A stretch of 64,000 bases of DNA from an uncultured Chloroflexus sp. (GTDB taxonomy: Bacteria; Chloroflexota; Chloroflexia; Chloroflexales; Chloroflexaceae). Below the pieces are notes generated by a model that worked only from the letters and a program-made list of their open reading frames with translations, was not told where the DNA came from and did not search any database. Location of the stretch: the NCBI RefSeq assembly GCF_937951745.1, contig NZ_CALFBQ010000004.1, positions 1-64,000 of the forward strand, read 5' to 3'. Both the position numbers and the translations under genes were made by a program. This document shows, piece after piece, positions 32,134-46,455 of this stretch. The stretch's first letter is position 1; the number at the start of each line of letters is the position of its first letter.

Positions 32134-34173
32134 ATGAACCATCGCATGCCGTCACTCATCCGAACAGTTACATCGCGTTACCAGCGCACTGCATTGGCAT
32201 TTCTGATCTTGCTCTCGCTGGTGACGCTAGTTGTTGCGCTGAGCGCGCTGGGTGATGCAACGTTGCGCGCCGAGTGGCCGCGTTTGGCCGGGATGCTGGC
32301 GTGTCTTGGTGTAATGCTGGGATTGGCATGGCTGACCCCGCTGCGCGTCTTGACTACGTGGGGGCAACTCGCGTTGATTGGTCTTGAACTAGCGGCGGCA
32401 GCCGGTGCGCAACTGCTCACGGCGGCGCCGTTGATCGACTACATCTATCTTGTGCTCGTGTTACAGGGCATTATGCTCTTTCGGCCATGGGTGTGGGCGA
32501 TCATGGCAGTTGGGGTCTGGGCCATTTGGGCCGTTGTACGCTATCAGCTCTCAAAAGACCTGCTTGGCTGGTTGCAGAGCAACCTTGTGATTGCGTTTCC
32601 GGCCACGTATGCGATTATTGCCGCCTTCATTTACGCTCGTCACGTGCATCGCAGCGAACAGATGCAGGCAATGTTGCAGCAGATGCAGCAACGCTATGCC
32701 GCTTTATCTGCCTTTCTGCGCGATGTGCAACAGCGTGCAGCACGCGAAGAACGGCAGCGCCTGTTACATCTACTCGCGAGTGAAGTGCAGCAGGCGTTGG
32801 TGAATGCCGAGCAGAGTGTCACCGCCGCTTTGGCGATGGCGCAGACGAACCTTGGCCGGGTGCAGGCCGTGATTGATGTCCCACGAGCGGCGGCGGCGAA
32901 CGCGATCGAGCGTTTGCGGGCCACGGTGATGGCCTTACGCTATCAGTCGGGGAGTGACGAGTCGCCGCCGCGTCTGGCGCTGACTGGCGCCATTGATGAG
33001 ACCTTGATCGCGCCGCGCCCGAATCACATACTGGCATGGCTGTTACCGTCGCTCTTTGTCTCGTTGTCGTTGGGGTTGGCGTTGCTGCAACCGCACCCTC
33101 TGTCGCTGGGGGTATTGCTCTGGTTGGTGGCACTCGGCGGCTTGTTGATTGTGACCAGCGCATGCACCCAACAGGTGCGGCATGCCGTTTTTGTCCAACT
33201 GGGATTAGCGGCACAAACCCTGACAATTGGGCTGATGGCGGCTATGACCAATCTGTTGCCGCTACTCTGGGGGTTGTTGCTGGTGGCATGGCAAATGGCG
33301 AGCCGGCTGTCGCTCTTGCAATGGCTCAGGTTCGTAGCAGTGTTGCCACTCCTCCTCATAGTGGTAAGTTTTTGGCAGCCATTCGCACTTGACGTAACGA
33401 CAACAGTAAGCTTGCTGGTGGCAATGGTGCTGGTGAGTGCGCCGTTGTTGTTGGCTCGCTATCAGTTGCGCCGTCGTCAGCAGGTCGAGCAACAGGTTAA
33501 GTTCCTAGAAGCGGAGATGCAGCAACAAGCTAACGAGGTGCATAAGATTGCTGTGGCAGCGGAGCGGGCGCGGCTGGCGCGTGAGATGCACGATGATCTT
33601 GGCTCGAAACTGGTGTTGATCAACTTGACGTTGCAAGTTGCTGCCGAATTAGCTGCCGAAGATCCGGCTGCGGCCTGCGATCATTTGGCGAATAGCCGTG
33701 AATTATTGGGGAGCGCGTGGCAAAGCTTGTTGGCCGTCGTGGATGCTGAACTTCCGGTAGGTGCAACCCTGACCGAAACCTTGCGCCAGTTGGCAAGGCA
33801 ATGTGCCCAAAGTACACGCGCACGGGTGGAATTGGACATACAGGGTGAGGTTGATCATCTGGCAGCCCCGGTTATTCATTGTCTCTATCGTACTGTCCAA
33901 GAAGGTTTAACGAACGCCTGCAAACATGCGCGCGCTGACACGATTACCGTGCAAGTAAAGGTTGAAGGCGGCTGTGTGGTGGTAACGATCACAAATAACG
34001 ATTGTCCTGATCGCGTGCTGCTGCCGGTTGATCTGGGCAGTGGCAGCTTTGGTCTGATCGGGTTGCGGGAACGGGCCGAGGCGCTCGGTGGTGGTCTTGA
34101 GGCCGGGCCGTTGCCCGCAGGCGGCTGGCGGCTGCGCTTGGTGTTGCCGGCTGAAGATGAGGCTTCACTATGA
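32134..34173 (+). CDS. NarL-type sensor histidine kinase
   Basis: This 679-residue kinase autophosphorylates on H486 in the HisKA_3 motif LAREMHDDLGSKL. The ATPase domain follows with EGLTNACKHARA (N-box) and GSFGLIGLRERAEALGG (G-box). The N-terminal part has two blocks of membrane helices, about 18-165 and 298-440, with a soluble coiled region between, an unusual double sensor. The stop overlaps the regulator start by four bases (ATGA). The ATG at 32134 has no clear ribosome site, so the transcript may be leaderless. Confidence 0.9.
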   Translation: MNHRMPSLIRTVTSRYQRTALAFLILLSLVTLVVALSALGDATLRAEWPRLAGMLACLGVMLGLAWLTPLRVLTTWGQLALIGLELAAAAGAQLLTAAPLIDYIYLVLVLQGIMLFRPWVWAIMAVGVWAIWAVVRYQLSKDLLGWLQSNLVIAFPATYAIIAAFIYARHVHRSEQMQAMLQQMQQRYAALSAFLRDVQQRAAREERQRLLHLLASEVQQALVNAEQSVTAALAMAQTNLGRVQAVIDVPRAAAANAIERLRATVMALRYQSGSDESPPRLALTGAIDETLIAPRPNHILAWLLPSLFVSLSLGLALLQPHPLSLGVLLWLVALGGLLIVTSACTQQVRHAVFVQLGLAAQTLTIGLMAAMTNLLPLLWGLLLVAWQMASRLSLLQWLRFVAVLPLLLIVVSFWQPFALDVTTTVSLLVAMVLVSAPLLLARYQLRRRQQVEQQVKFLEAEMQQQANEVHKIAVAAERARLAREMHDDLGSKLVLINLTLQVAAELAAEDPAAACDHLANSRELLGSAWQSLLAVVDAELPVGATLTETLRQLARQCAQSTRARVELDIQGEVDHLAAPVIHCLYRTVQEGLTNACKHARADTITVQVKVEGGCVVVTITNNDCPDRVLLPVDLGSGSFGLIGLRERAEALGGGLEAGPLPAGGWRLRLVLPAEDEASL

Positions 34174-34829
34174 CGATACGTGTCCTCATTGTTGATGACC
34201 AGCCGCTGATTCGCACCGGTATCGCAACGTTGCTGGCTCGGAAAGCGGATATTGAAGTGGTTGGGCAAGCTGGCAACGGTCGTGAGGCACTAGCGCTGGT
34301 GGCAGAGCTTGATCCTGATGTTGTGCTGATGGATGTGATGATGCCAGTGATGGACGGCGTTGAAGCGACGCGACAGCTTGCTGCCCGTGGCCCGCGACCG
34401 CTGGTGATTATGCTCACTACCTTCCACGATGATGAGCGCGTGTTGCAATCGATTGCCGCTGGCGCGCGCGGCTATCTGCTCAAAGATGTTGATCATCGCA
34501 CACTGGCCGAGAGTATTCGCACGGTTGCTGCCGGTGGCGCACTGATCCACCCCCAGATTACTGCCCAACTCTTGCCGCGTCTGAGCCAGTTGGCTACCGC
34601 TGCGTCGCCGCCGGCTGAACCGCCTGTTGCTGAACCGGCGATTGCGCTGACTCCCCGCGAGCGCGAGATTCTGCTGCTGTTGGCGCAGGGCTATACGAAT
34701 CAAGAGATTGGCGAAAGGCTTGCGCTTAGTATCGGCACGGTCAAAAACCACCTCAGTGTCATTTTTGCGAAGTTGAACGTGCGTGACCGTACCCAAGCTG
34801 CGTTGTGGGCACGCGAGCACTTGCGGTAG
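34170..34829 (+). CDS. NarL/FixJ-type response regulator
   Basis: This 219-residue regulator has a receiver domain (1-120) with D9, D10, phosphoacceptor D55 in VVLMDVMMPVMDG and a Lys in GYLLKDVD, and a LuxR-type HTH (about 155-215: LTPREREILLLLAQGYTNQEIGERL). The two are joined by a Pro/Ala linker. It is coupled to the upstream kinase, which surely phosphorylates it. Its targets are unknown; the next genes downstream are convergent. Confidence 0.94.
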   Translation: MTIRVLIVDDQPLIRTGIATLLARKADIEVVGQAGNGREALALVAELDPDVVLMDVMMPVMDGVEATRQLAARGPRPLVIMLTTFHDDERVLQSIAAGARGYLLKDVDHRTLAESIRTVAAGGALIHPQITAQLLPRLSQLATAASPPAEPPVAEPAIALTPREREILLLLAQGYTNQEIGERLALSIGTVKNHLSVIFAKLNVRDRTQAALWAREHLR

Positions 34830-34947: not shown

Positions 34948-37900
34948 TCACTTCATGATCACCGCCATCAGCACACGATACGTCGGCGGTGCAAACGCAC
35001 CTTTGGCAGTATACATCACCGAGTTGCCGGCGCTATCGGTCGCGGTGATGATTAACCTCACATCAGGCCAATTGCGCGGGACGCTCGCTAGCCAACGTTG
35101 CCGGTTGAGCGGATCTTGCGTAAAGGTCAGCGGCATCCACGTCGCGTTGTCGGCGGCAAGATAAACACCGGTAACTGCAACCTCAGGATTGCTCGGATTG
35201 TCAGGATCGCTGACGATAACCTCAATTGGGGTGGAAATACTCTGCAACCCGGCATCTTGCCCAGCGATACGTACTCGTTCGATCACCGGTGGATTTTGAT
35301 CGGCCAAGGCTGTACTCGCTCCGTCCGCCTCTGGATCGGTGTAAATCACCTGATAGACCAGTTGCGTGTAAGGGCGCAACGTGCCGGTCACGCCGTTGGT
35401 GGCGCGGAATTGGGCTGCTGTGCTAATCAGGGTATCACGCTGTGAGTCGCCGCTGCCGGTGCTGCTATAGCCGAAGAAGCGATCGGGCACCCACACCCCG
35501 ATCCCTGCGCTGAAGTCGGGTTCGATAGTCGTTGTAATCAACGGGGTGGAGGTCTCGGTCACAATTTGGGTAACGGTTGGGTTGAAGTTCTCGACAGTGT
35601 TGTACTGGCCACCAAGGAAGATGATATCGCGCACCACTAATGGCTGGTGATCGTCATCATCACTACCCGATAGCGCCGTAATATCGTAGGTAAAGGCAGG
35701 CAAACTCGGCATCCCGATCAGATTGTTGTCAAAGACGGTTACCGTTGGCGTGACGTTAAAGGTGCTGGCGAGCAAGAAGGTGTCGGTGATGGTGAAGTTG
35801 CCGGCAGTGAGCTGTACCGCTTGACCGGTGCGGGTTGGGCGAAGGTAGTTGGCATCGTAACTGATCGTAAACGTGATCGTGCGTGTCAATTGACTGCCGG
35901 ATGTTGGGATGGGTGCAGTGCGATCATTGATGGGTAGTTCGGCATTGAGATCTTCAACTGGTGCCGTGAGCGGATTATCTACCAAGATTCGCTTCCACGG
36001 CAGCCCGTACAGCGTGGTGATCAAGAGGATTTTGTAGTCGTAAGCGTTTAATCCGGTTGAAGTGCGCAAATAGCGCAGCTTGGCCTGCACCAGTGCGTCG
36101 CCGATGTTGCGTCCTACGTAGGTGATGCCGTTGGTGGCAGATGGATCGGGACGGGTTTCATTCCGCATCAGTTCTTGAGTCAGCAGCGCTGCCAGTCGTT
36201 CACTGTAATCAACGCCGTCGAGCGTACCGTAACCATAGCCGGTGTTACCGATCCAGTTGCCGGCATGACGGTTGAAGGCTTGGGCAAAGTCGGCAGCGTA
36301 ATAGTCGAGCGGGATGTCAAGTGTCTGATCTATCGCTCTTGCCGGCACATTGTAGCCGCTGTGACAGCCCACCGAGTAGTAGATAGTGTTGTAGAAGAAG
36401 CCGGGGCATTCCACTGGGTAGTAGTCGCATATCGACGATACACCCTCGTATCCCGTTATTAACACGCGATCAGCCGGGAAGTTAGGAGACCTGCTACTCT
36501 CGACTGCTGGGATAAGTTGCCAGTGATCAAAGTGGGCATTGAGCGAGCTGAGTAGCGTGTTCGTGCGCGAAAAGATACTTAATGGCGCGCTGAAGAAGCC
36601 GGTAGTCCTGAGTGGTTGCTCAAGCCATGTGTTCTCGAAGGCGGTGCGATCCCATAAGTTGCTAATGAGTGGCCGTTTGGCAAGTGAGTTAGCCGTGGCT
36701 TGGTTGAGGGTGCGTGAAATTGCTTCCGCACCGTCGATCAGAAAGTCATAGCCGGTAAGTGAGATGCTGTATGAAGAGATTTCTGGGTCTACCCGAAGAT
36801 CGATATTCGTCTCACTGTAGGATCCCGGCACATTGCGGCGCAGAAAATCGGCGATTTCACTCGGTTGCTCGACGATCCGGCCAATGGCTAGTTGGGGCAC
36901 GAATAATGGGAACCCATAGAAGCGGTATGGTCGGTCAGTGCCATACGGGTTATCGCTCAGCAACATCCGGTTGCGTAGCGCTGCACCAAGCGGGTTGTCG
37001 GCTGCGATCAGGCTATTGCCGTTGCTCCGCGTGTCGATGCTCTTTAGATATTCTAAATAATCGGCCTCGTTGGCAATGGTGGTTAGATCGGGCAGACGGA
37101 AGAAGGGGATGATCTCGTCGCTCCCGATCAAGACAATATGCCGCACGTTGGGGTAAGGCGTCCTTTGATTCGTCTCATTGTTGCGTGTATTATCGTTGTT
37201 AGCTATCATCTGGTACCGGATGCGCACTTCACCCGAACGACCATTGCCGGCGGGGGCAATCGCCGCTTCGATCACGTGGTCAATGATACTGGCAAGGTAA
37301 TTGGCGTAGAGCGGGTTGCGCTGATTGGCCGGTTGCGACCAGTCGCTCAGCAATTGGTTAAATGGCGTTGCGCCGCTGCTGGTGATGACCTCAAGATTGG
37401 CGAGATCGATAACCGCACCTTTTTCTCTGATCAGTGGATGTTCTGATGCGCCCCAAATGAGGGTCTGCGTATATGAGTACGATTGTTGCAAGGTTGACGT
37501 AATTGTAGTGATACTCGTCAGATCGTTGGTATACACCTCTTGCATGCGGGCGGAATTGATGATGTAGAGAGTAGTGACATTGTCGTCGGGTGTGTCAGTC
37601 AGAAACTGTACGTGCGGGGCCGGGCCAAGTGATTGGAGCGTACTGCGCTGGAGCGTAATGGTCAGCCGGTACGGTCGGGAACTGATTTGACCGGCATTGG
37701 CCGGCGCAACCGCTGCGAAGTATAGCCCCGGTTGCCAGACGATCGTCTCGATCCGTTCATCGCGGTTGGCAAGGTTGGCACTGATTGAAGCAATCTGGCC
37801 ACCAATCGAGGCAATCTGGCCGCCAATCGAAGCAATCTGGCCGCCAATCGAAGCAATCTGGCCGCCAATCGAAGCAATCTGGCCGCCAATCGAGGCAATC

Positions 37901-38352
37901 TGGCCGCCAACCTGTGTTACACCCTCCAAACCGCGTTCGCCGGTATCGAACTCAAAGCTGTCGGTCGCACCACCCTCGCCAGTTGCCGGATCAATGCCGC
38001 CACCGAAGACCAGATCGTAATCGGCGTCTAAGTTAGTTAGATCAATAGTCACCAACGAACCGGGCGCGTCAACCACAAAGGCGAAGTAGTCAATATCACT
38101 TGACGAGGCAATAATGCCATTGATCGACTGCCGCCAGCTATCGGTGCGATCAACCGCGATGCGCTGAGCGTTTGCGCCGGGTTGGAGGATGCGATTATTT
38201 GGCTCGATCTCATTAAGCAGCGGCAATTCGGAGATGCTAGTGAGATGGATCGGTTCGGATTCGGCGGCAGTAGCCGGGGTGGGTTGTGGCGTCAGCGCGA
38301 ACGGCGTGAGCAACATCACCATAACTGTCAGCACGATCAGGAGGCGTGACAT
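34948..38352 (-). CDS. Secreted C25 (gingipain-like) peptidase with PPC domain and GGQIASI heptads
   Basis: This 1134-residue protein has a signal peptide (about 1-30, cleavage after ATAA). A PPC-like beta domain begins at NEIEPNN (48) and spans to about 235. Six exact heptads GGQIASI fill residues 149-190 inside it. The central part (about 245-780) resembles C25 peptidases: HIVLIGSDEIIPFFRLPD, HFDHWQL and SVGCHSGYN, with C663 the likely nucleophile. I could not fix the partner His with certainty. The tail has beta-rich repeats with TDSAGNS near the end. No membrane anchor or sorting signal is seen. GGAAGGAGC lies before the ATG. It starts 18 bases after the cyclase gene and is probably in its operon. 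Confidence 0.78.
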   Translation of the reverse strand: MSRLLIVLTVMVMLLTPFALTPQPTPATAAESEPIHLTSISELPLLNEIEPNNRILQPGANAQRIAVDRTDSWRQSINGIIASSSDIDYFAFVVDAPGSLVTIDLTNLDADYDLVFGGGIDPATGEGGATDSFEFDTGERGLEGVTQVGGQIASIGGQIASIGGQIASIGGQIASIGGQIASIGGQIASISANLANRDERIETIVWQPGLYFAAVAPANAGQISSRPYRLTITLQRSTLQSLGPAPHVQFLTDTPDDNVTTLYIINSARMQEVYTNDLTSITTITSTLQQSYSYTQTLIWGASEHPLIREKGAVIDLANLEVITSSGATPFNQLLSDWSQPANQRNPLYANYLASIIDHVIEAAIAPAGNGRSGEVRIRYQMIANNDNTRNNETNQRTPYPNVRHIVLIGSDEIIPFFRLPDLTTIANEADYLEYLKSIDTRSNGNSLIAADNPLGAALRNRMLLSDNPYGTDRPYRFYGFPLFVPQLAIGRIVEQPSEIADFLRRNVPGSYSETNIDLRVDPEISSYSISLTGYDFLIDGAEAISRTLNQATANSLAKRPLISNLWDRTAFENTWLEQPLRTTGFFSAPLSIFSRTNTLLSSLNAHFDHWQLIPAVESSRSPNFPADRVLITGYEGVSSICDYYPVECPGFFYNTIYYSVGCHSGYNVPARAIDQTLDIPLDYYAADFAQAFNRHAGNWIGNTGYGYGTLDGVDYSERLAALLTQELMRNETRPDPSATNGITYVGRNIGDALVQAKLRYLRTSTGLNAYDYKILLITTLYGLPWKRILVDNPLTAPVEDLNAELPINDRTAPIPTSGSQLTRTITFTISYDANYLRPTRTGQAVQLTAGNFTITDTFLLASTFNVTPTVTVFDNNLIGMPSLPAFTYDITALSGSDDDDHQPLVVRDIIFLGGQYNTVENFNPTVTQIVTETSTPLITTTIEPDFSAGIGVWVPDRFFGYSSTGSGDSQRDTLISTAAQFRATNGVTGTLRPYTQLVYQVIYTDPEADGASTALADQNPPVIERVRIAGQDAGLQSISTPIEVIVSDPDNPSNPEVAVTGVYLAADNATWMPLTFTQDPLNRQRWLASVPRNWPDVRLIITATDSAGNSVMYTAKGAFAPPTYRVLMAVIMK
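37783..37908 (-). repeat. Six tandem 21-base units coding GGQIASI
   Basis: Six in-frame 21-base units, differing only at single positions (GAAGC/GAGGC), encode the heptads inside the C25 protein. Because the unit is a multiple of three, copy-number change by slippage would keep the frame. Confidence 0.95.
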
Positions 38353-38370
38353 AAGAATGCTCCTTCCAAG

Positions 38371-41300
38371 TTATGCAGGTAACGCCACGGCGAAGGTGAG
38401 ATCGCGCTGAGCATCAAGTTCGGTAAAGATGGCGATTGCTTCGGCGCGAGCGATGGCCGCAGTAGCATCGTCGTGACGGGCGAGTGCCAGCCGTGCTTGC
38501 TGATATCGAACTTTGCCTAACTCATAGCGATTATCTAGTTGGGCCAAGGTGGAGCTGCTGCGGGCAAAGAGATCTTCTGCAACATCAAGATCGCCGCATG
38601 CTAAAGCTATCTCGCCAAGCACACGATCAGCAATTGCCGAGTCGTCGGCTTGGCCGAGTTCTTCTGCAATAGCCAATGAACGATGAGCGTTAGCGCGGGC
38701 TTGAGTAAGATCACCCAAGACCAACGCCGCTAAAGCGGCTAAGCGCAAGACTTCGGGTAAGAAACTGCGGGCATTGATCGCTTCGAGATCGGCAATTGCC
38801 GCCTGAAACAGTTTGAGCGCCTCGGCAGCGCGGTCTTGATAGAGTAGCACTTCGCCGCGGTTATACTTTGTTACTGCAACCCCGAGGCGTGAACCGAGGT
38901 GGGCAAAGAGTTCACTGGCTCGCTGGTACAATGCGCCGGCCCGGTCGAGTTGGTTACGTCCTACTAATACTACCGCCAGATTGTTGGCCGTGCGAGCCGT
39001 GGCTAACACATCGCCAATGTTTTCTGAGATCGCCATCGATTGCTCGAACACGGCAATAGTCTCGGCCCATCGTCCGGCTTGGGTGTAGACGCGGCCAAGG
39101 TCGTTGAGCACATCACACAAGCCGGCTGGCATATTTGCCTGTTCGTAGAGGGTGCGCGCTTGGTTGAGCGTTTCGATCGCTTGGGCGCGGTCTCCTTGAT
39201 CATTGGCAATATTACCGATAATCTTGAGCGCGCGCGCCTGATCGGTGGCGCTGCCGTTTTGCGCCGCCAATTCGTAGCCGATCCGCGCCCATTCCATGGC
39301 ATGGGTGTAATCACCGGTGCGGTACGCGATGCCGGTGCCGAGAATGTAGCAGCGCGCCGTCTCTGCTTGCAAGCCGCGATGGGCGCGGGCCATGCCTTCG
39401 GTCAACCGATCGAACGCGGCTTGATAGCGTGAGCGCCGCTCTTCCACTGTGGCCAGCATGCGGTGCATACGCAACCAGCGTTCGCTGACCGGTTCGTCTC
39501 CTACCGGTAGACTGAGCTGCAGCGCCTCGTGGAAGTGATGTTCCGCTTGATCGTATTCACCCAATACCAGATGTAGTTCGCCGATCGCTTCATGGATCGC
39601 GGCCACGTGATCGATCAGTTGCGCAGGCGGTAAGACCGTCGTTAGCCGTGGCGCGATGTTGAGCGCGGTGGTATACAGGGCGAGCGCGTCGCGGTTGGCG
39701 AAGCGCCGGCGGGCTTGCTCGGCAGCTTGCACGTGATAGCGCAAGGCAGGTTGCCACTCTTCGGCTTGCAGAAAGTGCCATGCCAGCACGGCGTACTGTT
39801 CTTCGAGCTGCTGGGCTGCGATGGTTTCGATCCGACGGGCAACACGGGCGTGCAGAGTGCGGCGGCGGGCGTAGAGAATCCCTTCGTAGGCGACATCGCG
39901 CAGCAGCGCATGGCGGAAGATGTAGGCTAAAATCCGCTCTTGCTGGTCGGCTTGGATCAATTCGCCTTCAATCAGGCGTTGGATGCTCTCGTCCAGCGCA
40001 GGTGGGTTTGAATACACTCCTTCCACCACCGGGCGCGGAAAGCGACGCCCAATCACTGAAGCAACCTGCACCAGCTCTTGGCGCGGTTCGTCGAGTCGGT
40101 CAAGTCGGGCGATCAGTAGACCTTCGATGCTGCGCGGCAGCTCGATTTTCTCGATTGGTTGCGTTAGTTGCCATACGCCGCTTTCTGCGTTGCGCACCAG
40201 TAAGCGGTCACGCACTAACGCGCGTACCAACTCTTCGATAAAGAAGGGATTGCCTTGGGTGCGCTCGAGTAGCGGCAAGATATCGTTGGGCGGCGGCCCG
40301 CCAAGGAGCGCTGCGAGCAAGGCTTGGCTATCGCTTAGCGGCAATTCGCCTAACTCGATTCGGATGGTGTTGGGGAGCGTTTCCCAAGGTGTAGGCGATG
40401 CCATTTCGGGACGGTAGGTGAGGGTTAAAGCGAGTGCTCTGCCCTGAGCGGCTTTGCTGAGGCGTTCGAGCACTTCGAGCGAGGGTGAGTCGGCCCAATG
40501 GCAATCTTCGAGCACCAACAAAACTGGCTCACGCTTAGTTGTAGCGAGAAAAATATCAACGATTAGCTCTTGCAGCCGGTCGTGCCGTTGTTGAGGCGAT
40601 AAGCCGGCGGTGAGCGGCGTATCAGCCAGTGGCAGGCCGAGCGTATCAGACAGCAACGGTGTAAACCGGCTGGAATCCGGCACGAGCCGTTCGACGCGGG
40701 CAACCGTGTCAGCAGCTAATTGGGCTGGTGCGGCGCGCAGGTCAAGTCCTAGCGCATTCGTCAGCGGCGCGCGAATCGTGGCGTAGGCGGTGCGCTGTTC
40801 GTAACTCTGGCAATCGCCAAACAGGATCGTAAACGATGGTACATCTTCGGTCGCATGATCGTGTTCGGTAGAAGCGATGACTAAGCGCTGGATCACCTCC
40901 TCGGCTAGGCGAGATTTACCGGCGCCAGCTTCGCCGACAATGGCAATCGTCGCGCCTTGCCCGTTCAACGCTGCTCGGGCTGCCGTTAACACACGTGCCA
41001 ATTCGGCATCTCGCCCGATCAGTGGCGCAACCGTCAACTGTTCGAGGTGATGGCGCGTGGTAACTGTGGCAATCTGTACTACCTTGGCCGGTGTGACCGC
41101 TTCACGAAACCCCTTGAGGTGCAGCGGTGTTCCTGCCTCAAGCACAAATTGACCTTCGATGGCTGTCTGCGTGCTTGGTGAAAGGTAGATCGCGCCGTCA
41201 GGCGCAGCGGCCATCAGACGAGCCGCGAGATTGACCGCCGGCCCCATAACGGTGTATTCATACCGCGTTGCTCCGCCGACCCGTCCGGCAAAGACGGTAC

Positions 41301-42582
41301 CGGTATTGATACCGATCTTCTGGGCCAGCGGTGGCGTAGTCGGGCCGAGTAAGGTGGCAATCTCGGCGTTGACTTCAGAGAGTGTCTCGCGCAACTCGAT
41401 TGCACAACGCACGGCCCGCGTCGGGTCGTCTTCGTGAGCAGTCGGTGCTCCGAACAACGCCATCAACTTGTCGCCATGGGTGTACATATCGACTTTGTTG
41501 ATGATGCCATCGTAGCGATGCACAACTGCCTGCATGCGCCGGTAGTAGGCGTTGAAAACGGTAGCGGCTAGGTTAGGATCAGAATCGAGCACCGCAAGGT
41601 AGTGGGAAAAATCGTGGACATTGGCAAAGAGTACGGTAACCGGGCGAAACTCACCTAACTCGCCGGCAGCAGGGTCGAGAAAGCGCCGGGGCAGGCGATA
41701 CACGAGGTAGGGTTGCAATGCCGCTAATTGGTGGGCCAAGCGATTGAGGGTGGCCAGATCGTTGGGGCCGTCGAGCGGTAATGGCAGTGGCGGCGCAATC
41801 ATAGCTTGGGTAAAGGCTAGCTCATGGAGCCGATAAAATCCATCGCGCCGCGCCTCAATATGCGGCTGAGCAAGCAATCGGGCCGTTTGTTCCGTAATCA
41901 CCACTTCACCGGGCGCAGCAATCTCTTGCGCGAGGGCCACCCGGTTCACTTCCGGCCCGGTCACCACCAGTTCGATATGGCTCTGATCACCGACTTCGGC
42001 GGCAAAGACACGTCCGACATGCACGCCAACCCGCAGCCGCAGTGTAAAGGTTCCGGTCCGGGTTTCAAGATTGGCGAATTCAGCCATGCGCGTTTGCATC
42101 GCCAAGGCCGCCGTACAAGCCGCGGTCGCATGCTGATCGCCGAGTGTAGCAGCATCGAAAAAGACAGTCAGGGCATCGCCGCCAAACTTGAGCAGCGCCC
42201 CGCTCCGTGCTTGCACTTCATGCAGCAGCGCGGCAAATAGTCGGTTGACAACTGCTGAAACTTCTTCGGCTCCTTGCCGGCCAAGCACCGATAACCGTTC
42301 GGAGAGAGCAGTGAAGCCGGATAGATCGGCAAAGAGGAGCGATCCTTCCCAGAACGCACCGGTGGTGCGTCCGGGTTGCGGATCGGCGAGTTGGCTCTGC
42401 ACAATGCGGGCCGGAATGTAGGCAGCGTGGGCGGCCAAGCGTGCGCGTAGATCGCGCCCAAGGCGTGCGCGCATCGGTAGGGGCAGATCGTTGACCGCAG
42501 TAAGCTCAGCAATCTGCTGGTCATCAAGGTGAATGATGAGATCGTGCCATTGCGTCAGCGAACCCGTCATGACGGCTTCCAT
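38371..42582 (-). CDS. Soluble adenylyl cyclase (sAC-like): two cyclase domains, ATPase, TPR
   Basis: This 1403-residue protein should make cAMP from ATP. C1 (about 80-240) has the metal Asps D86 (LFADLSGF) and D136 (KFGGD) but lacks the transition-state Arg (L217). C2 (about 313-475) has N321 instead of the first metal Asp, but keeps K363 (INK), T444, N451 and R455 (VNLAARL). So one complete site forms between C1 and C2, as in mammalian sAC. An ATPase follows (Walker A GEAGAGKS near 550), then an AAA/STAND-like helical part and TPR-like repeats (about 960-1390). K132 matches a bicarbonate-binding Lys of sAC, but the position of its Arg176 is A216. The first ATG has GAGG upstream. The gene is upstream of the C25 gene. 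Confidence 0.9.
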   Translation of the reverse strand: MEAVMTGSLTQWHDLIIHLDDQQIAELTAVNDLPLPMRARLGRDLRARLAAHAAYIPARIVQSQLADPQPGRTTGAFWEGSLLFADLSGFTALSERLSVLGRQGAEEVSAVVNRLFAALLHEVQARSGALLKFGGDALTVFFDAATLGDQHATAACTAALAMQTRMAEFANLETRTGTFTLRLRVGVHVGRVFAAEVGDQSHIELVVTGPEVNRVALAQEIAAPGEVVITEQTARLLAQPHIEARRDGFYRLHELAFTQAMIAPPLPLPLDGPNDLATLNRLAHQLAALQPYLVYRLPRRFLDPAAGELGEFRPVTVLFANVHDFSHYLAVLDSDPNLAATVFNAYYRRMQAVVHRYDGIINKVDMYTHGDKLMALFGAPTAHEDDPTRAVRCAIELRETLSEVNAEIATLLGPTTPPLAQKIGINTGTVFAGRVGGATRYEYTVMGPAVNLAARLMAAAPDGAIYLSPSTQTAIEGQFVLEAGTPLHLKGFREAVTPAKVVQIATVTTRHHLEQLTVAPLIGRDAELARVLTAARAALNGQGATIAIVGEAGAGKSRLAEEVIQRLVIASTEHDHATEDVPSFTILFGDCQSYEQRTAYATIRAPLTNALGLDLRAAPAQLAADTVARVERLVPDSSRFTPLLSDTLGLPLADTPLTAGLSPQQRHDRLQELIVDIFLATTKREPVLLVLEDCHWADSPSLEVLERLSKAAQGRALALTLTYRPEMASPTPWETLPNTIRIELGELPLSDSQALLAALLGGPPPNDILPLLERTQGNPFFIEELVRALVRDRLLVRNAESGVWQLTQPIEKIELPRSIEGLLIARLDRLDEPRQELVQVASVIGRRFPRPVVEGVYSNPPALDESIQRLIEGELIQADQQERILAYIFRHALLRDVAYEGILYARRRTLHARVARRIETIAAQQLEEQYAVLAWHFLQAEEWQPALRYHVQAAEQARRRFANRDALALYTTALNIAPRLTTVLPPAQLIDHVAAIHEAIGELHLVLGEYDQAEHHFHEALQLSLPVGDEPVSERWLRMHRMLATVEERRSRYQAAFDRLTEGMARAHRGLQAETARCYILGTGIAYRTGDYTHAMEWARIGYELAAQNGSATDQARALKIIGNIANDQGDRAQAIETLNQARTLYEQANMPAGLCDVLNDLGRVYTQAGRWAETIAVFEQSMAISENIGDVLATARTANNLAVVLVGRNQLDRAGALYQRASELFAHLGSRLGVAVTKYNRGEVLLYQDRAAEALKLFQAAIADLEAINARSFLPEVLRLAALAALVLGDLTQARANAHRSLAIAEELGQADDSAIADRVLGEIALACGDLDVAEDLFARSSSTLAQLDNRYELGKVRYQQARLALARHDDATAAIARAEAIAIFTELDAQRDLTFAVALPA

Positions 42583-42871: not shown

Positions 42872-43843
42872 ATGGTCGCCCAGCTCTACGAAACGACCGG
42901 CGTCACCGCTGCCGAATTAATAGCCGAGATTAACGACTTGCGCCGCCGGCGCAATGCCATCATTTTGGCTCACAATTACGAATACGGCGAGATTCAGGAG
43001 ATCGCCGATTACGTTGGCGACTCGCTTGGCATGGCGCAGGCTGCCGCCCGCACCAACGCCGATGTGATTGTGGTCTGCGGCGTCTACTTTATGGCTGAAA
43101 CGGCAGCCATTCTCAACCCGCAGCGCACGGTTCTGATCCCCGATGCTAATGCCGGCTGTTCATTGGCCGATTCGATAACCGTCGAGCAGTTGCGCGCGTG
43201 GAAGGCGGCCAATCCCGGCGCGGTGGTGGTGAGCTATGTCAACACTAGCGCCGCCGTTAAGGCCGAGAGTGATTATTGCTGCACGTCGGGCAATGCCGAG
43301 CGGGTGATCAATGCGATCCCGGCTGATAAGACCATCCTCTTCTTGCCGGATATGTTCCTTGGCAGCTACTTGCGCCAAAAGACGGGCCGTCCGCTCAAGA
43401 TTTGGGCCGGCGAGTGTCACGTTCACGCTGCTATCCGCCCTACAATGATCGAGCAGAAGCGGGCGGCGATGCCTGATGCCGAGTTTCTGATTCACCCGGA
43501 ATGTGGGTGTGTGAGCAGCGCGATGGACTATCTGGCCCGTGGTGCGATAGATAGTCGCGGTACCCATATTCTCTCAACCGAGGGTATGATCGCGCATGCC
43601 AGTCGCTCGCCGGCCAGCCGCTTCGTGGTTGCTACCGAGATCGGTGTGCTCCATCGGATGCGCAAGGCTAATCCTGACAAACAGTTTGTACCGATTGATG
43701 AGTCGATCAGTTGTCGCTACATGAAGATGATCACGCTCGAAAAGGTGCGCGATAGTTTGCGCGATTTGCGCGAACCCGTCACCGTGCCGCCGGACATTGC
43801 CGCGCGCGCGCGAGTCGCGATTGACCGGATGTTGGCGTTGTAG
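42872..43843 (+). CDS. nadA: Quinolinate synthase
   Basis: NadA condenses iminoaspartate with dihydroxyacetone phosphate to quinolinate, using a [4Fe-4S] cluster. The 323-residue length fits. C69 (VVCGVYFMAE), C182 (GECHVHA) and C281 (ISCRYMKM) match the three cluster ligands. The N-terminal ILAHNYEYGEIQEIADYVGDS is the family signature. It is the first gene of nadABC. TTGGAGAA lies 8 bases before the ATG. Confidence 0.97.
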   Translation: MVAQLYETTGVTAAELIAEINDLRRRRNAIILAHNYEYGEIQEIADYVGDSLGMAQAAARTNADVIVVCGVYFMAETAAILNPQRTVLIPDANAGCSLADSITVEQLRAWKAANPGAVVVSYVNTSAAVKAESDYCCTSGNAERVINAIPADKTILFLPDMFLGSYLRQKTGRPLKIWAGECHVHAAIRPTMIEQKRAAMPDAEFLIHPECGCVSSAMDYLARGAIDSRGTHILSTEGMIAHASRSPASRFVVATEIGVLHRMRKANPDKQFVPIDESISCRYMKMITLEKVRDSLRDLREPVTVPPDIAARARVAIDRMLAL

Positions 43844-43881
43844 TCGTGGCAATGCACCGCATTGTCGCCGGAGGACTCACA

Positions 43882-45507
43882 ATGCAATCTATCTCTGCCC
43901 CGCGGAGTGCGTTACCATCGCTACCCCCAGCTCGCGAACGGCGCGTTGATGTCTTGGTCATTGGCGCCGGCGCGGCTGGCCTGACCGCCGCATTAGCAGC
44001 CGCAGCGCGCGGCGCACAGGTTTTGGTGTTGGCCCGTGGTTCGTTGCCGGAAAGCAATTCGGCGTGGGCGCAGGGCGGCATCGCCGCTGCGCTCGATCCG
44101 GCTGACTCGCCGGGGATTCACGTTGCCGATACGCTGACTGCCGGCGCCGGTTTGTGTGACGTGGCGGCGGTGTCGGTGTTGGCTCACGAAGCGCCGGCGT
44201 TGATGCGGGAATTAGCCGAGCTTGGCGTCCCCTTTGAGCGTGATGCCGATCGGTTTGCATTGGGTTTGGAAGGCGGCCATTCGCGCCGACGCATCGTTCA
44301 CGTCGGTGATGCTACCGGCTGGGCGGTGACGCAGATGCTGATCGAGCGTGTGCGAGCGATGCCGCTGATTACCGTGTGCGAGCAAGCGCAAGCGGTTGAG
44401 TTGCTCACCGCCGGTGAGCGGGTGGTGGGGGCGTTGGTGCGGTTGGTCGGCGGCACGTGGTTGCGGGTGCTCGCTACGGCGACGGTGTTGGCCAGTGGTG
44501 GGGCTGGCGCGTTGTATGGCCTCACCAGCAATCAGCCTACGGCGCTGGGTGAAGGGATCGCGATGGCGTATCGGGCCGGCGCGGAAGTGGCCGATATGGA
44601 ATTCGTCCAGTTTCATCCTACGGTTTACCGTACTCGCGATGGGCAGGGCTTCTTGATCACCGAAGCGGCGCGGGGCGAGGGTGGCTTGCTCTATACGCCA
44701 GCGGGCCGTCGCTTTATGCCGGCCTACGATCCGCGCGCCGAATTAGCCCCGCGTGATGTAGTGACGCGCGGTATTGTCGCGGCGATGCAGGCCGAGGGGT
44801 GCGATCACGTCTTGCTCGATCTGACCCATCTCCCCGCCGATCTGATCGAACACCACTTCCCGACCATCTGTGCCCGCTTGCGGGCCGATGGGATCGATCC
44901 GGTGCGCGATCCGATCCCGGTTGCACCGGCGGCGCACTATCTGATGGGAGGTGTGCGCACCGATCTCAGCGGTGCGACTACTCTGCCCGGCCTGTTTGCT
45001 GCCGGCGAGGTGGCATGCACCGGCGTGCATGGCGCGAACCGGCTGGCGAGCAATTCGCTGCTCGAGTGTCTCGTCTTTGGCCGCCGGGCCGGCGAAGCGG
45101 CAGCATCGTATCGTGGCCGCGCTGTGCCGCCGCCTGACCCCTTGCCGGTGGCGCCCGTGGCTGTGTCGCCACCGGCTGATTGGCGCAACGCGCTAGCGAC
45201 GATCATGCGCGCGGCGGGGCCATTGCGCCACGGTGATGGCCTGCGCGCCGCCTTAGCTGCGTTGGAGGCATGGCCGGCCAGCGCCGATCTGACTGATGCT
45301 GATGCGCTCACGGCGGTTAATGCCGCCCTGACGGCGCGGCTCATCGTCGCTTCTGCCTTGCTTCGCACCGAGAGCCGTGGCGGCCATTTCCGCCTCGATT
45401 ACCCGCAGAGTGATGAGGCGTGGCGCAAGCATACCATCTTGTGCCGCGGTACATCACCGGTGTTTGTGCCTGCCATTGCGCCGGCGCCAGCGTTGGCCGC
45501 CGATTAA
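43882..45507 (+). CDS. nadB: L-aspartate oxidase
   Basis: NadB oxidises L-aspartate to iminoaspartate for NadA, with FAD. The protein has 541 residues. The FAD loop VIGAGAAGLTAA is near residue 26; the active-site region MEFVQFHPT and the HGANRLASNSLLECLVFG run of the succinate dehydrogenase/aspartate oxidase family are clear. The start at 43882 has CGGAGG upstream; an in-frame ATG at 43846 lacks a site. It begins 38 bases after nadA. The C-terminal helical domain is a little short and Ala-rich. Confidence 0.95.
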   Translation: MQSISAPRSALPSLPPARERRVDVLVIGAGAAGLTAALAAAARGAQVLVLARGSLPESNSAWAQGGIAAALDPADSPGIHVADTLTAGAGLCDVAAVSVLAHEAPALMRELAELGVPFERDADRFALGLEGGHSRRRIVHVGDATGWAVTQMLIERVRAMPLITVCEQAQAVELLTAGERVVGALVRLVGGTWLRVLATATVLASGGAGALYGLTSNQPTALGEGIAMAYRAGAEVADMEFVQFHPTVYRTRDGQGFLITEAARGEGGLLYTPAGRRFMPAYDPRAELAPRDVVTRGIVAAMQAEGCDHVLLDLTHLPADLIEHHFPTICARLRADGIDPVRDPIPVAPAAHYLMGGVRTDLSGATTLPGLFAAGEVACTGVHGANRLASNSLLECLVFGRRAGEAAASYRGRAVPPPDPLPVAPVAVSPPADWRNALATIMRAAGPLRHGDGLRAALAALEAWPASADLTDADALTAVNAALTARLIVASALLRTESRGGHFRLDYPQSDEAWRKHTILCRGTSPVFVPAIAPAPALAAD

Positions 45508-45519
45508 GAGGGGCGCGGA

Positions 45520-45538
45520 GGCGCAGCGGCGCTGCGCC
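45520..45538 (+). promoter_or_regulatory. Hairpin between nadB and nadC
   Basis: GGCGCAGC and GCTGCGCC form a perfect 8-base-pair stem with a GGC loop in the 96-base gap. No T-run follows, so it may set relative expression of nadC rather than end transcription. Confidence 0.4.
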
Positions 45539-45603
45539 CCTTCATACCCCTTTACACCCTTCTACCCTATACATCGTCGTTTATGATACGAAACGGAACT
45601 CGT

Positions 45604-46455
45604 ATGGAACTTCCCCTACAGGTTATTGATACTGTTGTCGCTCATGCGCTCGCCGAAGACATCGGCAGCGGCGATCTGACCACGCTGGCTGCAATTCCGG
45701 CGACTGCGCACATGACCGCTCATCTTGTCACCCGTGAAGCTGGAGTAATTGCCGGCTTGCCGGTGGTGGTCGCTGTCTTTCGCCAGCTTGATCCCAGTGT
45801 CAAGGTGCTGCTGCACACCGCCGATGGCGTCGCAGTTGTTGCTGGTGCTACGCTTGCCACCGTGACCGGCCCGGCCCGCAGCATCCTCAGTGGCGAACGG
45901 GTGGCGCTCAATCTGTTGCAACGCCTCAGCGGGATTGCCACCGTGACGGCCCAGTATGTGGTGGCAGTGGCCGGCACGCGGGCCCAGATTCTCGATACGC
46001 GCAAGACAACGCCGGGTTTGCGAGCGCTTGAGAAATATGCTGTCCGGATGGGCGGCGGGCGCAATCACCGGTTTGGCCTGTATGACGGCGTGATGCTCAA
46101 AGACAACCATCTGGCCATCCTTGCCGCACAAGGGATCGATCTGGCAACTGCTATTGCCCGCGTGCGCGCGCAGCTTGGGCCGATGGTGCGGCTCGAGGTT
46201 GAAGTTGAGAGCGTCGCTGATGCGATCACTGCCGCTGAAGCCGGAGCCGATCTGATCTTGCTTGATAACATGCCGCTCGACCAGCTCCGCGCAGCGGTGC
46301 AGGCGGTAGCCGGTCGTGCGCAGACCGAAGCCAGCGGCGGCGTCAATCTGCAAACGGTGCGGGCGATTGCTGAGACTGGGGTTGATTACATTTCAGTCGG
46401 GGCGCTGACCCATTCGGTGCGCGCGCTCGATATTGGGCTCGATTACGCGGCGTAA
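45604..46455 (+). CDS. nadC: Nicotinate-nucleotide diphosphorylase (carboxylating)
   Basis: NadC converts quinolinate and PRPP to nicotinate mononucleotide, completing the pathway begun by NadB and NadA. With the ATG at 45604 it has 283 residues, the usual size. LALAEDIGSGDLTT at the start, the LSGERVALNLLQRLSGIAT run, LDTRKTTPGLR and the late ETGVDYISVGALTHS are all family hallmarks with the phosphate and quinolinate contacts (R, K, H). An ACGGAA site precedes the ATG. An upstream ATG at 45583 is possible. Confidence 0.96.
   Translation: MELPLQVIDTVVAHALAEDIGSGDLTTLAAIPATAHMTAHLVTREAGVIAGLPVVVAVFRQLDPSVKVLLHTADGVAVVAGATLATVTGPARSILSGERVALNLLQRLSGIATVTAQYVVAVAGTRAQILDTRKTTPGLRALEKYAVRMGGGRNHRFGLYDGVMLKDNHLAILAAQGIDLATAIARVRAQLGPMVRLEVEVESVADAITAAEAGADLILLDNMPLDQLRAAVQAVAGRAQTEASGGVNLQTVRAIAETGVDYISVGALTHSVRALDIGLDYAA

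What the first reader, a model, noticed from the sequence alone, without database searches (positions are those of the whole stretch)
38371..42582. Bacterial soluble adenylyl cyclase with split catalytic residues
C1 supplies both metal Asps and C2 supplies the Lys/Thr/Asn/Arg set; each lacks the other half. Spacings match animal sAC (Asp to Asp 50; Thr to Asn 7; Asn to Arg 4). The ATPase and TPR-like tail match too. Of two bicarbonate-contact residues that I recall for sAC, the Lys is kept (K132) and the Arg is replaced (A216), so it may sense CO2/bicarbonate differently. I recall a report of a bicarbonate-responsive Chloroflexus cyclase but cannot verify it here.
Basis: partly seen in the sequence, partly recalled or inferred. 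Interest (0 to 1): 0.7.

Follow-up and report, generated by a model that had tools for sequence, protein, structure and literature searches.

The report
Bacterial sAC-like cyclase with peptidase partner
A Chloroflexus gene encodes a close bacterial relative of our bicarbonate-sensing adenylyl cyclase with one shared active site, but it lacks the arginine switch that mammals use to sense bicarbonate and it sits beside a gene for a secreted protease, which suggests an older and different signalling role.

Summary
The gene at 38371-42582 (minus strand, 1403 aa) encodes a two-domain class III cyclase followed by an ATPase and TPRs. Human sAC is its best solved relative by sequence and by predicted fold. 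C1 supplies both metal Asps (D86, D136) and C2 the Lys/Thr/Asn/Arg set, giving one active site. The halves are less clean than reported: C1 keeps an Asn (N213), C2 keeps the second Asp (D371), and Asp-Asp spacing is 50 against 52 in human. A Chloroflexus sAC-like cyclase is already in print, so the type is known.

Two results go further. First, the human switch residue Arg176 is Ala216 here, and is Arg or Lys in 0 of 167 distinct two-domain bacterial proteins, though Lys95 is kept in 79. Any bicarbonate response must work differently from the mammalian one. Second, 18 nt downstream lies a secreted protein with a gingipain (C25) fold and conserved His/Cys. Of 37 such genes found in 301 Chloroflexota genomes, 32 sit beside a class III cyclase, in three arrangements. 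Three paper searches on this pairing found nothing. A shared envelope-cytoplasm function is inferred, not shown.

The parts
38371..42582 (-). sAC-like two-domain class III cyclase-ATPase-TPR protein, 1403 aa (P0001)
   Evidence: ORF and translation; Pfam; human sAC E 2.3e-32
41839..42342 (-). C1 cyclase domain (PF00211 match)
41104..41652 (-). C2 cyclase domain (PF00211 match)
42325..42327 (-). D86 codon, metal Asp 1 (human D47)
   Evidence: Asp in 167 of 167
42175..42177 (-). D136 codon, metal Asp 2 (human D99)
   Evidence: Asp in 167 of 167
42187..42189 (-). K132 codon (human K95, bicarbonate-site Lys)
   Evidence: Lys in 79 of 167
41935..41937 (-). A216 codon (human R176, bicarbonate switch Arg)
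   Evidence: Arg or Lys in 0 of 167
41944..41946 (-). N213 codon, Asn kept in C1 at the place of the C2 catalytic Asn
   Evidence: motif VN at 212-213 against VN at 450-451
41620..41622 (-). N321 codon, Asn in C2 at the first-metal Asp position
   Evidence: motif LFAN against LFAD
41494..41496 (-). K363 codon (human K334)
41470..41472 (-). D371 codon, Asp kept in C2 at the second-metal position (human C342)
41251..41253 (-). T444 codon (human T405, adenine contact)
41218..41232 (-). N451 to R455 (human N412, R416)
   Evidence: N in 164 and R in 162 of 167
40444..41025 (-). AAA_16 ATPase domain, residues 520-713; Walker A GEAGAGKS at residues 550-557
38455..39603 (-). TPR region, residues 994-1376
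38353..38370 (-). 18-nt gap between cyclase stop and peptidase start, with GGAAGGAG (38360-38367), a likely ribosome-binding site
   Evidence: no terminator-like site in the gap
34948..38352 (-). Partner gene: secreted PPC plus gingipain-fold (C25-like) protein, 1134 aa, signal-peptide-like N terminus
37651..38226 (-). PPC / collagen-binding-like domain of the partner, residues 43-234, interrupted by the repeat
   Evidence: VIA Z 14.0 to 5iku, 114 residues aligned; profile E 1.7e-5
37783..37908 (-). Seven-residue repeats IASIGGQ inside the PPC domain
   Evidence: low confidence in the model
35977..37578 (-). Gingipain (C25) fold, residues 259-792
   Evidence: VIA Z 23.0 to RgpB 4ief_B, rmsd 3.1, 317 residues aligned
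36532..36534 (-). H607 codon, putative catalytic His of the partner
36364..36366 (-). C663 codon, putative catalytic Cys of the partner

Best explanation
The gene makes a cytosolic sAC-type adenylyl cyclase. C1 and C2 of one chain fold together and form a single ATP site: C1 holds the two metal ions with D86 and D136, and C2 holds the adenine (K363, T444) and the transition state (N451, R455). The other interface site is degenerate, so neither domain should work as a homodimer. The ATPase and TPR tail probably gates the cyclase. The Arg switch by which bicarbonate activates mammalian sAC is absent, as in every bacterial two-domain relative examined, so any bicarbonate or pH response must use another route, with K132 the obvious candidate. 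The cyclase is very likely co-transcribed with a secreted gingipain-fold peptidase, and the two most likely serve one process, for example cAMP control linked to surface proteolysis. Shown: sequence, residue set, predicted fold, gene pairing. Inferred: cAMP synthesis, gating by the tail, co-transcription, and the shared process.
For: Human sAC is the top PDB sequence hit (E 2.3e-32, both domains aligned). The model of residues 40-515 has pLDDT 93.8 and pTM 0.91; its first 24 Foldseek rows are all human sAC and VIA Z is 40.6 to sAC 4clk against 37.9 to the best tmAC row, 9u3r. Catalytic D/D in 167 of 167, N in 164, R in 162. Arg176 position is Arg or Lys in 0 of 167, including the five two-domain cyclases found in G110, a Chloroflexus genome of C. 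aurantiacus size. Pairing with the peptidase: 32 of 37 profile hits with E <= 1e-20 lie beside a class III cyclase. His/Cys dyad conserved. Gap of 18 nt with a ribosome-binding-like site.
Against: No biochemical data for this protein. The 2004 Chloroflexus paper is cited for bicarbonate activation, so some route to bicarbonate exists in at least one relative. 28 of 143 relatives (not this one) carry Arg or Lys one residue on, at 177, and this protein has Arg214 at the 174 position, so a displaced basic residue is not excluded. The model holds no ligand and its coordinates were not read. Most two-domain cyclases outside the window's clade have no peptidase beside them: only 2 of the loci L051-L092 do (L057, L058). 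Twenty-two of the 32 pairs share one inherited arrangement and are not independent.
Confidence: 0.62

Rival explanations
1. Bicarbonate sensor in the mammalian sense: HCO3- docks near K132 and activates the enzyme although Arg176 is missing.
For: PMC11006738 cites Kobayashi 2004 for bicarbonate activation of a Chloroflexus cyclase. K132 and T444 are kept. Nearby basic residue R214.
Against: In human sAC Arg176 is the switch to Asp99 (PMC12250328). Losing K95 or R176 greatly reduces HCO3- sensitivity and activity, and sea urchin sAC with Lys kept and Arg lost ignores HCO3- (PMC12867704). 0 of 167 bacterial proteins have Arg or Lys there.
Confidence: 0.2
2. pH sensor of sea urchin type: K132 titrates near neutral-alkaline pH and controls Asp136.
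For: Same Lys-kept, Arg-lost genotype as sea urchin sAC, which is activated at alkaline pH and impaired at pH 8 by mutating the Lys (PMC12867704 passages).
Against: Salmon sAC is pH-sensitive without that Lys, so genotype does not predict mechanism. The surrounding residues differ. 88 of 167 bacterial relatives lack the Lys.
Confidence: 0.17
3. The cyclase part is a nucleotide-sensing pseudo-enzyme or a guanylyl cyclase; the ATPase-TPR part is the business end.
For: A class III cyclase-like ATP-binding protein without assigned catalysis is among the fold matches (6yii, VIA Z 26.9). PF00211 does not separate activities.
Against: All catalytic residues are kept across 134 of 137 relatives, and the Lys/Thr pair is the ATP-selecting pair of sAC (PMC12867704 Table 1 and PMC12250328).
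Confidence: 0.08
4. The cyclase-peptidase adjacency is only inherited synteny with no shared function.
For: 22 of the 32 pairs are the same arrangement within related families. Three of 37 peptidase genes have no cyclase in the stretch fetched.
Against: The pairing recurs with distant cyclase relatives in two further arrangements, 6 convergent and 3 with the peptidase first, and at 27-30% peptidase identity in Herpetosiphon-like loci.
Confidence: 0.25

Closest known systems
Human soluble adenylyl cyclase ADCY10 (4clf, 4clk, 4oyz)
   Same: Two cyclase domains in one chain; metal Asps in C1; Lys/Thr/Asn/Arg in C2; Lys95 equivalent; ATPase/TPR-like tail (tail of human sAC recalled)
   Different: Ala for Arg176; Arg184 for Lys144; Asp371 kept in C2 in place of C342; Asp-Asp spacing 50 not 52; about 30% identity over the aligned core
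Chloroflexus sAC-like cyclases of Kobayashi et al. 2004 (paper not held; cited in PMC11006738)
   Same: Same genus-level group; two-domain architecture and bicarbonate stimulation as recalled; an orthologue (78% identity, L098) lies in G110, a genome of C. aurantiacus size
   Different: Which paralogue was tested could not be checked. None of the five two-domain cyclases found in G110 has the Lys/Arg pair
Sea urchin sAC (ApsAC, PMC12867704)
   Same: Lys95 equivalent kept, Arg176 equivalent replaced by a neutral residue
   Different: Asn rather than Ala; animal protein; pH regulation shown there, untested here
Gingipain RgpB / Kgp and PorU (C25 peptidases), for the partner gene
   Same: Predicted fold over residues 259-792 (VIA Z 23.0 to RgpB) and His/Cys dyad
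   Different: PPC domain with heptad repeats at the N terminus; 14% identity; no Pfam match for the fold region; paired with a cyclase
TOMM system kinase/cyclase fusion (TIGR03903)
   Same: Cyclase-ATPase-TPR run matches (279 bits)
   Different: Far below the curated cut-off of 705.75; two cyclase domains and no Pfam kinase match

Membership tests
sAC-type (ADCY10-like) two-domain class III cyclase | Two class III cyclase domains in one soluble chain | tested here: met
sAC-type (ADCY10-like) two-domain class III cyclase | One composite site: Asp/Asp from C1; Lys/Thr/Asn/Arg from C2 | tested here: met
sAC-type (ADCY10-like) two-domain class III cyclase | Predicted fold closer to sAC than to transmembrane cyclases | tested here: met
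   Foldseek rows 1-24 all sAC; VIA Z 38.2-40.6 for sAC, 37.9 and lower for tmACs.
sAC-type (ADCY10-like) two-domain class III cyclase | ATPase plus TPR C-terminal extension homologous to that of animals | tested here: inconclusive
   AAA_16 and TPR present; the human tail is not in the held structure set, so it was not compared
sAC-type (ADCY10-like) two-domain class III cyclase | Makes cAMP | not testable with these tools
   needs an assay
Mammalian-type bicarbonate-gated sAC | Lys95 | tested here: met
   K132
Mammalian-type bicarbonate-gated sAC | Arg176 switch | tested here: not met
   A216
Mammalian-type bicarbonate-gated sAC | Activation by HCO3- | not testable with these tools
   needs an assay
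Chloroflexus sAC-like enzymes of Kobayashi 2004 | Orthologue of the tested enzyme | tested here: inconclusive
   orthologue found in G110 (L098), but the paper is not held
C25 gingipain family (partner gene) | Gingipain fold | tested here: met
   VIA Z 23.0 RgpB, 19.3 Kgp; model pLDDT 73.3, pTM 0.81
C25 gingipain family (partner gene) | Catalytic His and Cys | tested here: met
   H607 in window and 18 of 18 distant homologues that span it; C663 in window and 19 of 19; columns also conserved in 24 of 24. The assignment to gingipain catalytic residues is by motif order, recalled
C25 gingipain family (partner gene) | Peptidase activity | not testable with these tools
   needs an assay
TOMM kinase/cyclase fusion TIGR03903 | Score above curated cut-off | tested here: not met
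   279 against 705.75 bits

The most novel reading that the evidence does not exclude
Chloroflexota carry an undescribed envelope-to-cytoplasm module: a secreted gingipain-fold peptidase and a cytosolic sAC-type cyclase-ATPase-TPR that act in one process. The bacterial cyclases represent the ancestral, Arg-less state of sAC, so the Arg176 bicarbonate switch of mammals is a later invention and bacterial sAC-like enzymes sense bicarbonate or pH, if at all, by another mechanism.
Probability: 0.35. Interest if true: 0.75.

Novelty: new variant of a known kind. Interest (0 to 1): 0.5.

Why it matters
Whether bicarbonate regulation of sAC is ancient is a live question: reviews call it an evolutionarily conserved property (PMC11006738 and PMC3085406, passages seen), while a 2026 study finds pH rather than bicarbonate control in sea urchin and salmon (PMC12867704). 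The bacterial outgroup has not entered that debate in what I read. Here the switch residue is absent from all 167 bacterial two-domain proteins examined, including the human-like clade. That makes the question directly testable with one purified bacterial enzyme and a handful of mutants. The conserved peptidase partner gives a first handle on what these large cyclases do in bacteria.

Tried and rejected
'Clean' complementary halves: rejected, because C1 keeps N213 and C2 keeps D371. Spacing of 50 as an sAC match: rejected (52 in human). Lys/Arg (mammalian) genotype elsewhere in bacteria: looked for and not found in 167 distinct two-domain proteins, including searches of 246 Planctomycetota-type and 349 Proteobacteria-type genomes centred on the genomes of L077 and L056 with a profile of the human-like clade. 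Two further two-domain matches (G386 C53 and C95) were listed but not fetched, and one search scored only two candidates per genome and did not list all matches, so the survey is not exhaustive. Idea that Arg176 is the leftover catalytic Arg of C1: not supported, since without gaps it falls one residue short of the C2 Arg position. Idea that the window protein is the closest bacterial relative of human sAC: rejected; human groups with another clade (support 0.997) that includes this genome's own paralogue L011 (33% identity against 30%). Phage-defence reading: PADLOC hits are generic cyclase models (PycC) and a TPR model; the partner has none. A C-terminal LP-motif count over the genome gave one match and led nowhere. 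Paper searches for the pairing and for cyclase with Chloroflexi and bicarbonate returned nothing; one search found only an AC9 paper and nothing on this point.

Rows dropped before counts: eight loci that repeat own-genome stretches, 21 exact duplicates, and 16 loci with a single cyclase domain. L049 (C2 broken) stays in the residue counts with gaps, and was left out of the tree. In one search, loci marked DUP and single-domain ORFs (45) were left out. The homodimeric control row that I named CyaC in scripts is in fact Cya2 (2w01) and is in no count.
Full report
What is there. The ORF at 38371-42582 (minus strand) runs 1403 codons from an ATG. Pfam finds two Guanylate_cyc domains, an AAA_16 ATPase domain at residues 520-713 and several TPRs between 994 and 1376; the P-loop GEAGAGKS is at 550. 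The host is a Chloroflexus: the closest named relatives of the protein are an unclassified Chloroflexota MAG (92%), C. islandicus (91%) and Chloroflexus sp. SKYG63 (88%), and its genome shares a genus with contigs of 5,258,541 and 4,684,931 bases, the sizes I recall for C. aurantiacus and C. aggregans.

Catalytic anatomy. The best PDB sequence match is human sAC (E 2.3e-32, both domains aligned). Human numbering was checked on the aligned fragments. D86/D136 stand at D47/D99, K132 at K95, A216 at R176, R184 at K144, K363 at K334, T444 at T405, N451 at N412 and R455 at R416. C1 has Val207 and Ala216 where human has Val167 and Arg176, yet keeps N213. C2 has N321 in place of the first metal Asp but keeps D371 at the second. 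So there is one complete site and one degenerate site, not two clean halves. The D-D spacing is 50, against 52 in human.

Fold. A model of residues 40-515 from 107 aligned window and locus proteins (A1) has mean pLDDT 93.8 and pTM 0.91. The first 24 Foldseek rows in the PDB are all human sAC, followed by AC9. With VIA-align, sAC 4clk has Z 40.6 (rmsd 2.8, 422 residues) and the best transmembrane cyclase, AC9 9u3r, Z 37.9 (rmsd 3.1, 406 residues); the lowest sAC rows (38.2) are tied with it.

Survey of the switch residue. Seven more from three Chloroflexus genomes and 23 from Planctomycetota-, Proteobacteria- and Gemmatimonadota-type genomes make 167. The R176 position is Ala in 107, Val 24, Gly 18, Ser 11, Thr 3, Asn 2, Leu 1 and Glu 1, never Arg or Lys; Lys95 is Lys in 79. 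An off-by-one alignment error is a caveat: 28 of 143 have Arg or Lys at 177, the next residue, in ungapped stretches such as VNLVARAQ against human VDDVRLAQ; the window protein is not one of them. In a tree of 144 rows human sAC groups with a mostly Lys95-bearing bacterial clade (support 0.997), including this genome's own paralogue L011; none of that clade has Arg176. The retrieval was by similarity to the window protein and that clade, so an unsampled Lys/Arg lineage is possible. In G110 the five two-domain cyclases found read K/A, T/A, K/G, K/A and H/S.

What the papers say. PMC12250328 (passages) states that Arg176 holds Asp99 in a salt bridge which bicarbonate breaks. PMC12867704 (passages) reports that replacing K95 or R176 greatly reduces HCO3- sensitivity and activity, that many non-mammalian sACs lack one of the two, that sea urchin and salmon sAC respond to pH and not to HCO3-, and that restoring the Arg in sea urchin sAC does not restore HCO3- sensitivity; the word 'bacteria' does not occur in it. 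PMC11006738 (passage) cites Kobayashi et al. 2004 for bicarbonate activation of a Chloroflexus cyclase; that paper is not held, and its further content (three two-domain enzymes, one cloned and stimulated) is recalled. If the recalled enzyme is one of the five found in G110, it was stimulated without Arg176.

The neighbour. The cyclase stop is followed after 18 nt, with GGAAGGAG, by a second minus-strand gene of 1134 codons (34948-38352). It has a signal-peptide-like N terminus, a PPC domain (VIA Z 14.0 to 5iku) split by seven-residue repeats, and a gingipain fold (Z 23.0 to RgpB 4ief_B, 317 residues, 3.1 A; Kgp 19.3). The model is of middling confidence (pLDDT 73.3, pTM 0.81). Its H607 and C663 are kept: 24 of 24 in the first alignment, and in 18 of 18 and 19 of 19 of the further distant homologues that span them. 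Pfam at E <= 1 gave no family for the window copy.

How conserved is the pair. In the named loci L017-L050, 27 of 34 hold at least 0.5 kb beyond the cyclase ORF; 24 of these show the peptidase on the same strand, and L028, L041 and L046 do not (the last two have a broken cyclase frame). A profile of the peptidase (A2) against 301 Chloroflexota genomes gave 37 ORFs at E <= 1e-20 (my merging of split rows). Thirty-two lie next to a class III cyclase: 23 with cyclase first on the same strand, 3 with peptidase first on the same strand (G112, G214 C89, G260 C1), and 6 convergent (G144, G145, G250, G281, G053, G061 C59); the cyclase of G145 has one cyclase domain. Two lie at contig ends (G070 C146, G238 C4); three have no cyclase in the fetched stretch (G128 C58, G199 C206, G253 C83; G199 also starts at a contig end). 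Against this, among loci L051-L092, mostly from other groups, only L057 and L058 have the peptidase, and in the window's genome only one peptidase copy exists beside one of four two-domain cyclases. As a rough yardstick, Chloroflexus genomes of about 5 Mb have 10-13 cyclase-domain matches, so a random gene would be next to one well under 2% of the time; I ran no formal test, and 22 of the 32 share one inherited arrangement.

Mechanism. Most likely the protein makes cAMP at one C1/C2 site, gated by its ATPase-TPR tail, and belongs with the peptidase to one process. Mammalian-type bicarbonate gating is unlikely because its switch is missing; a K132-based pH or bicarbonate response is open. None of this has been assayed.

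Standing. As a cyclase this is a member of the sAC-type group in all features testable here except the Arg switch, which also varies among animals. A Chloroflexus sAC-like enzyme is already in print. What I did not find in print (in an open-access library only) is the absence of Arg176 across bacteria and the peptidase pairing.

Noticed in passing
34948-38352 (-): Partner protein carries tandem seven-residue IASIGGQ repeats inside a PPC domain; repeat number and wording vary among orthologues (IGGQ, IGAQ, IGGT), and distant copies have none.
   Followed up: partly
34948-34980 (-) and the ends of L030, L036, L037, L047 copies: Many partner orthologues end in a motif like [YF]LPLVxR, possibly a C-terminal sorting signal; one genome-wide pattern search gave a single match.
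   Followed up: partly
L194-L201, L204: Distant partner homologues are much longer (1,600-2,400 aa), one with a right-handed beta-helix region (L196), as in surface proteins.
   Followed up: partly
L011 (G000 C14): Another two-domain cyclase of the same genome (1261-aa frame, Lys/Gly genotype) groups nearer to human sAC than the window protein does.
   Followed up: partly
42872-46455 (+): Genes at nadA, nadB and nadC positions, named by eye, lie divergent to the cyclase with a 289-nt gap; the arrangement is kept in several Chloroflexus and Oscillochloris loci.
   Followed up: partly
32134-34829 (+): A HisKA_3 histidine kinase and an adjoining response-regulator-like ORF lie convergent to the partner gene; homologues sit at the same place in L017, L020 and L032.
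   Followed up: no
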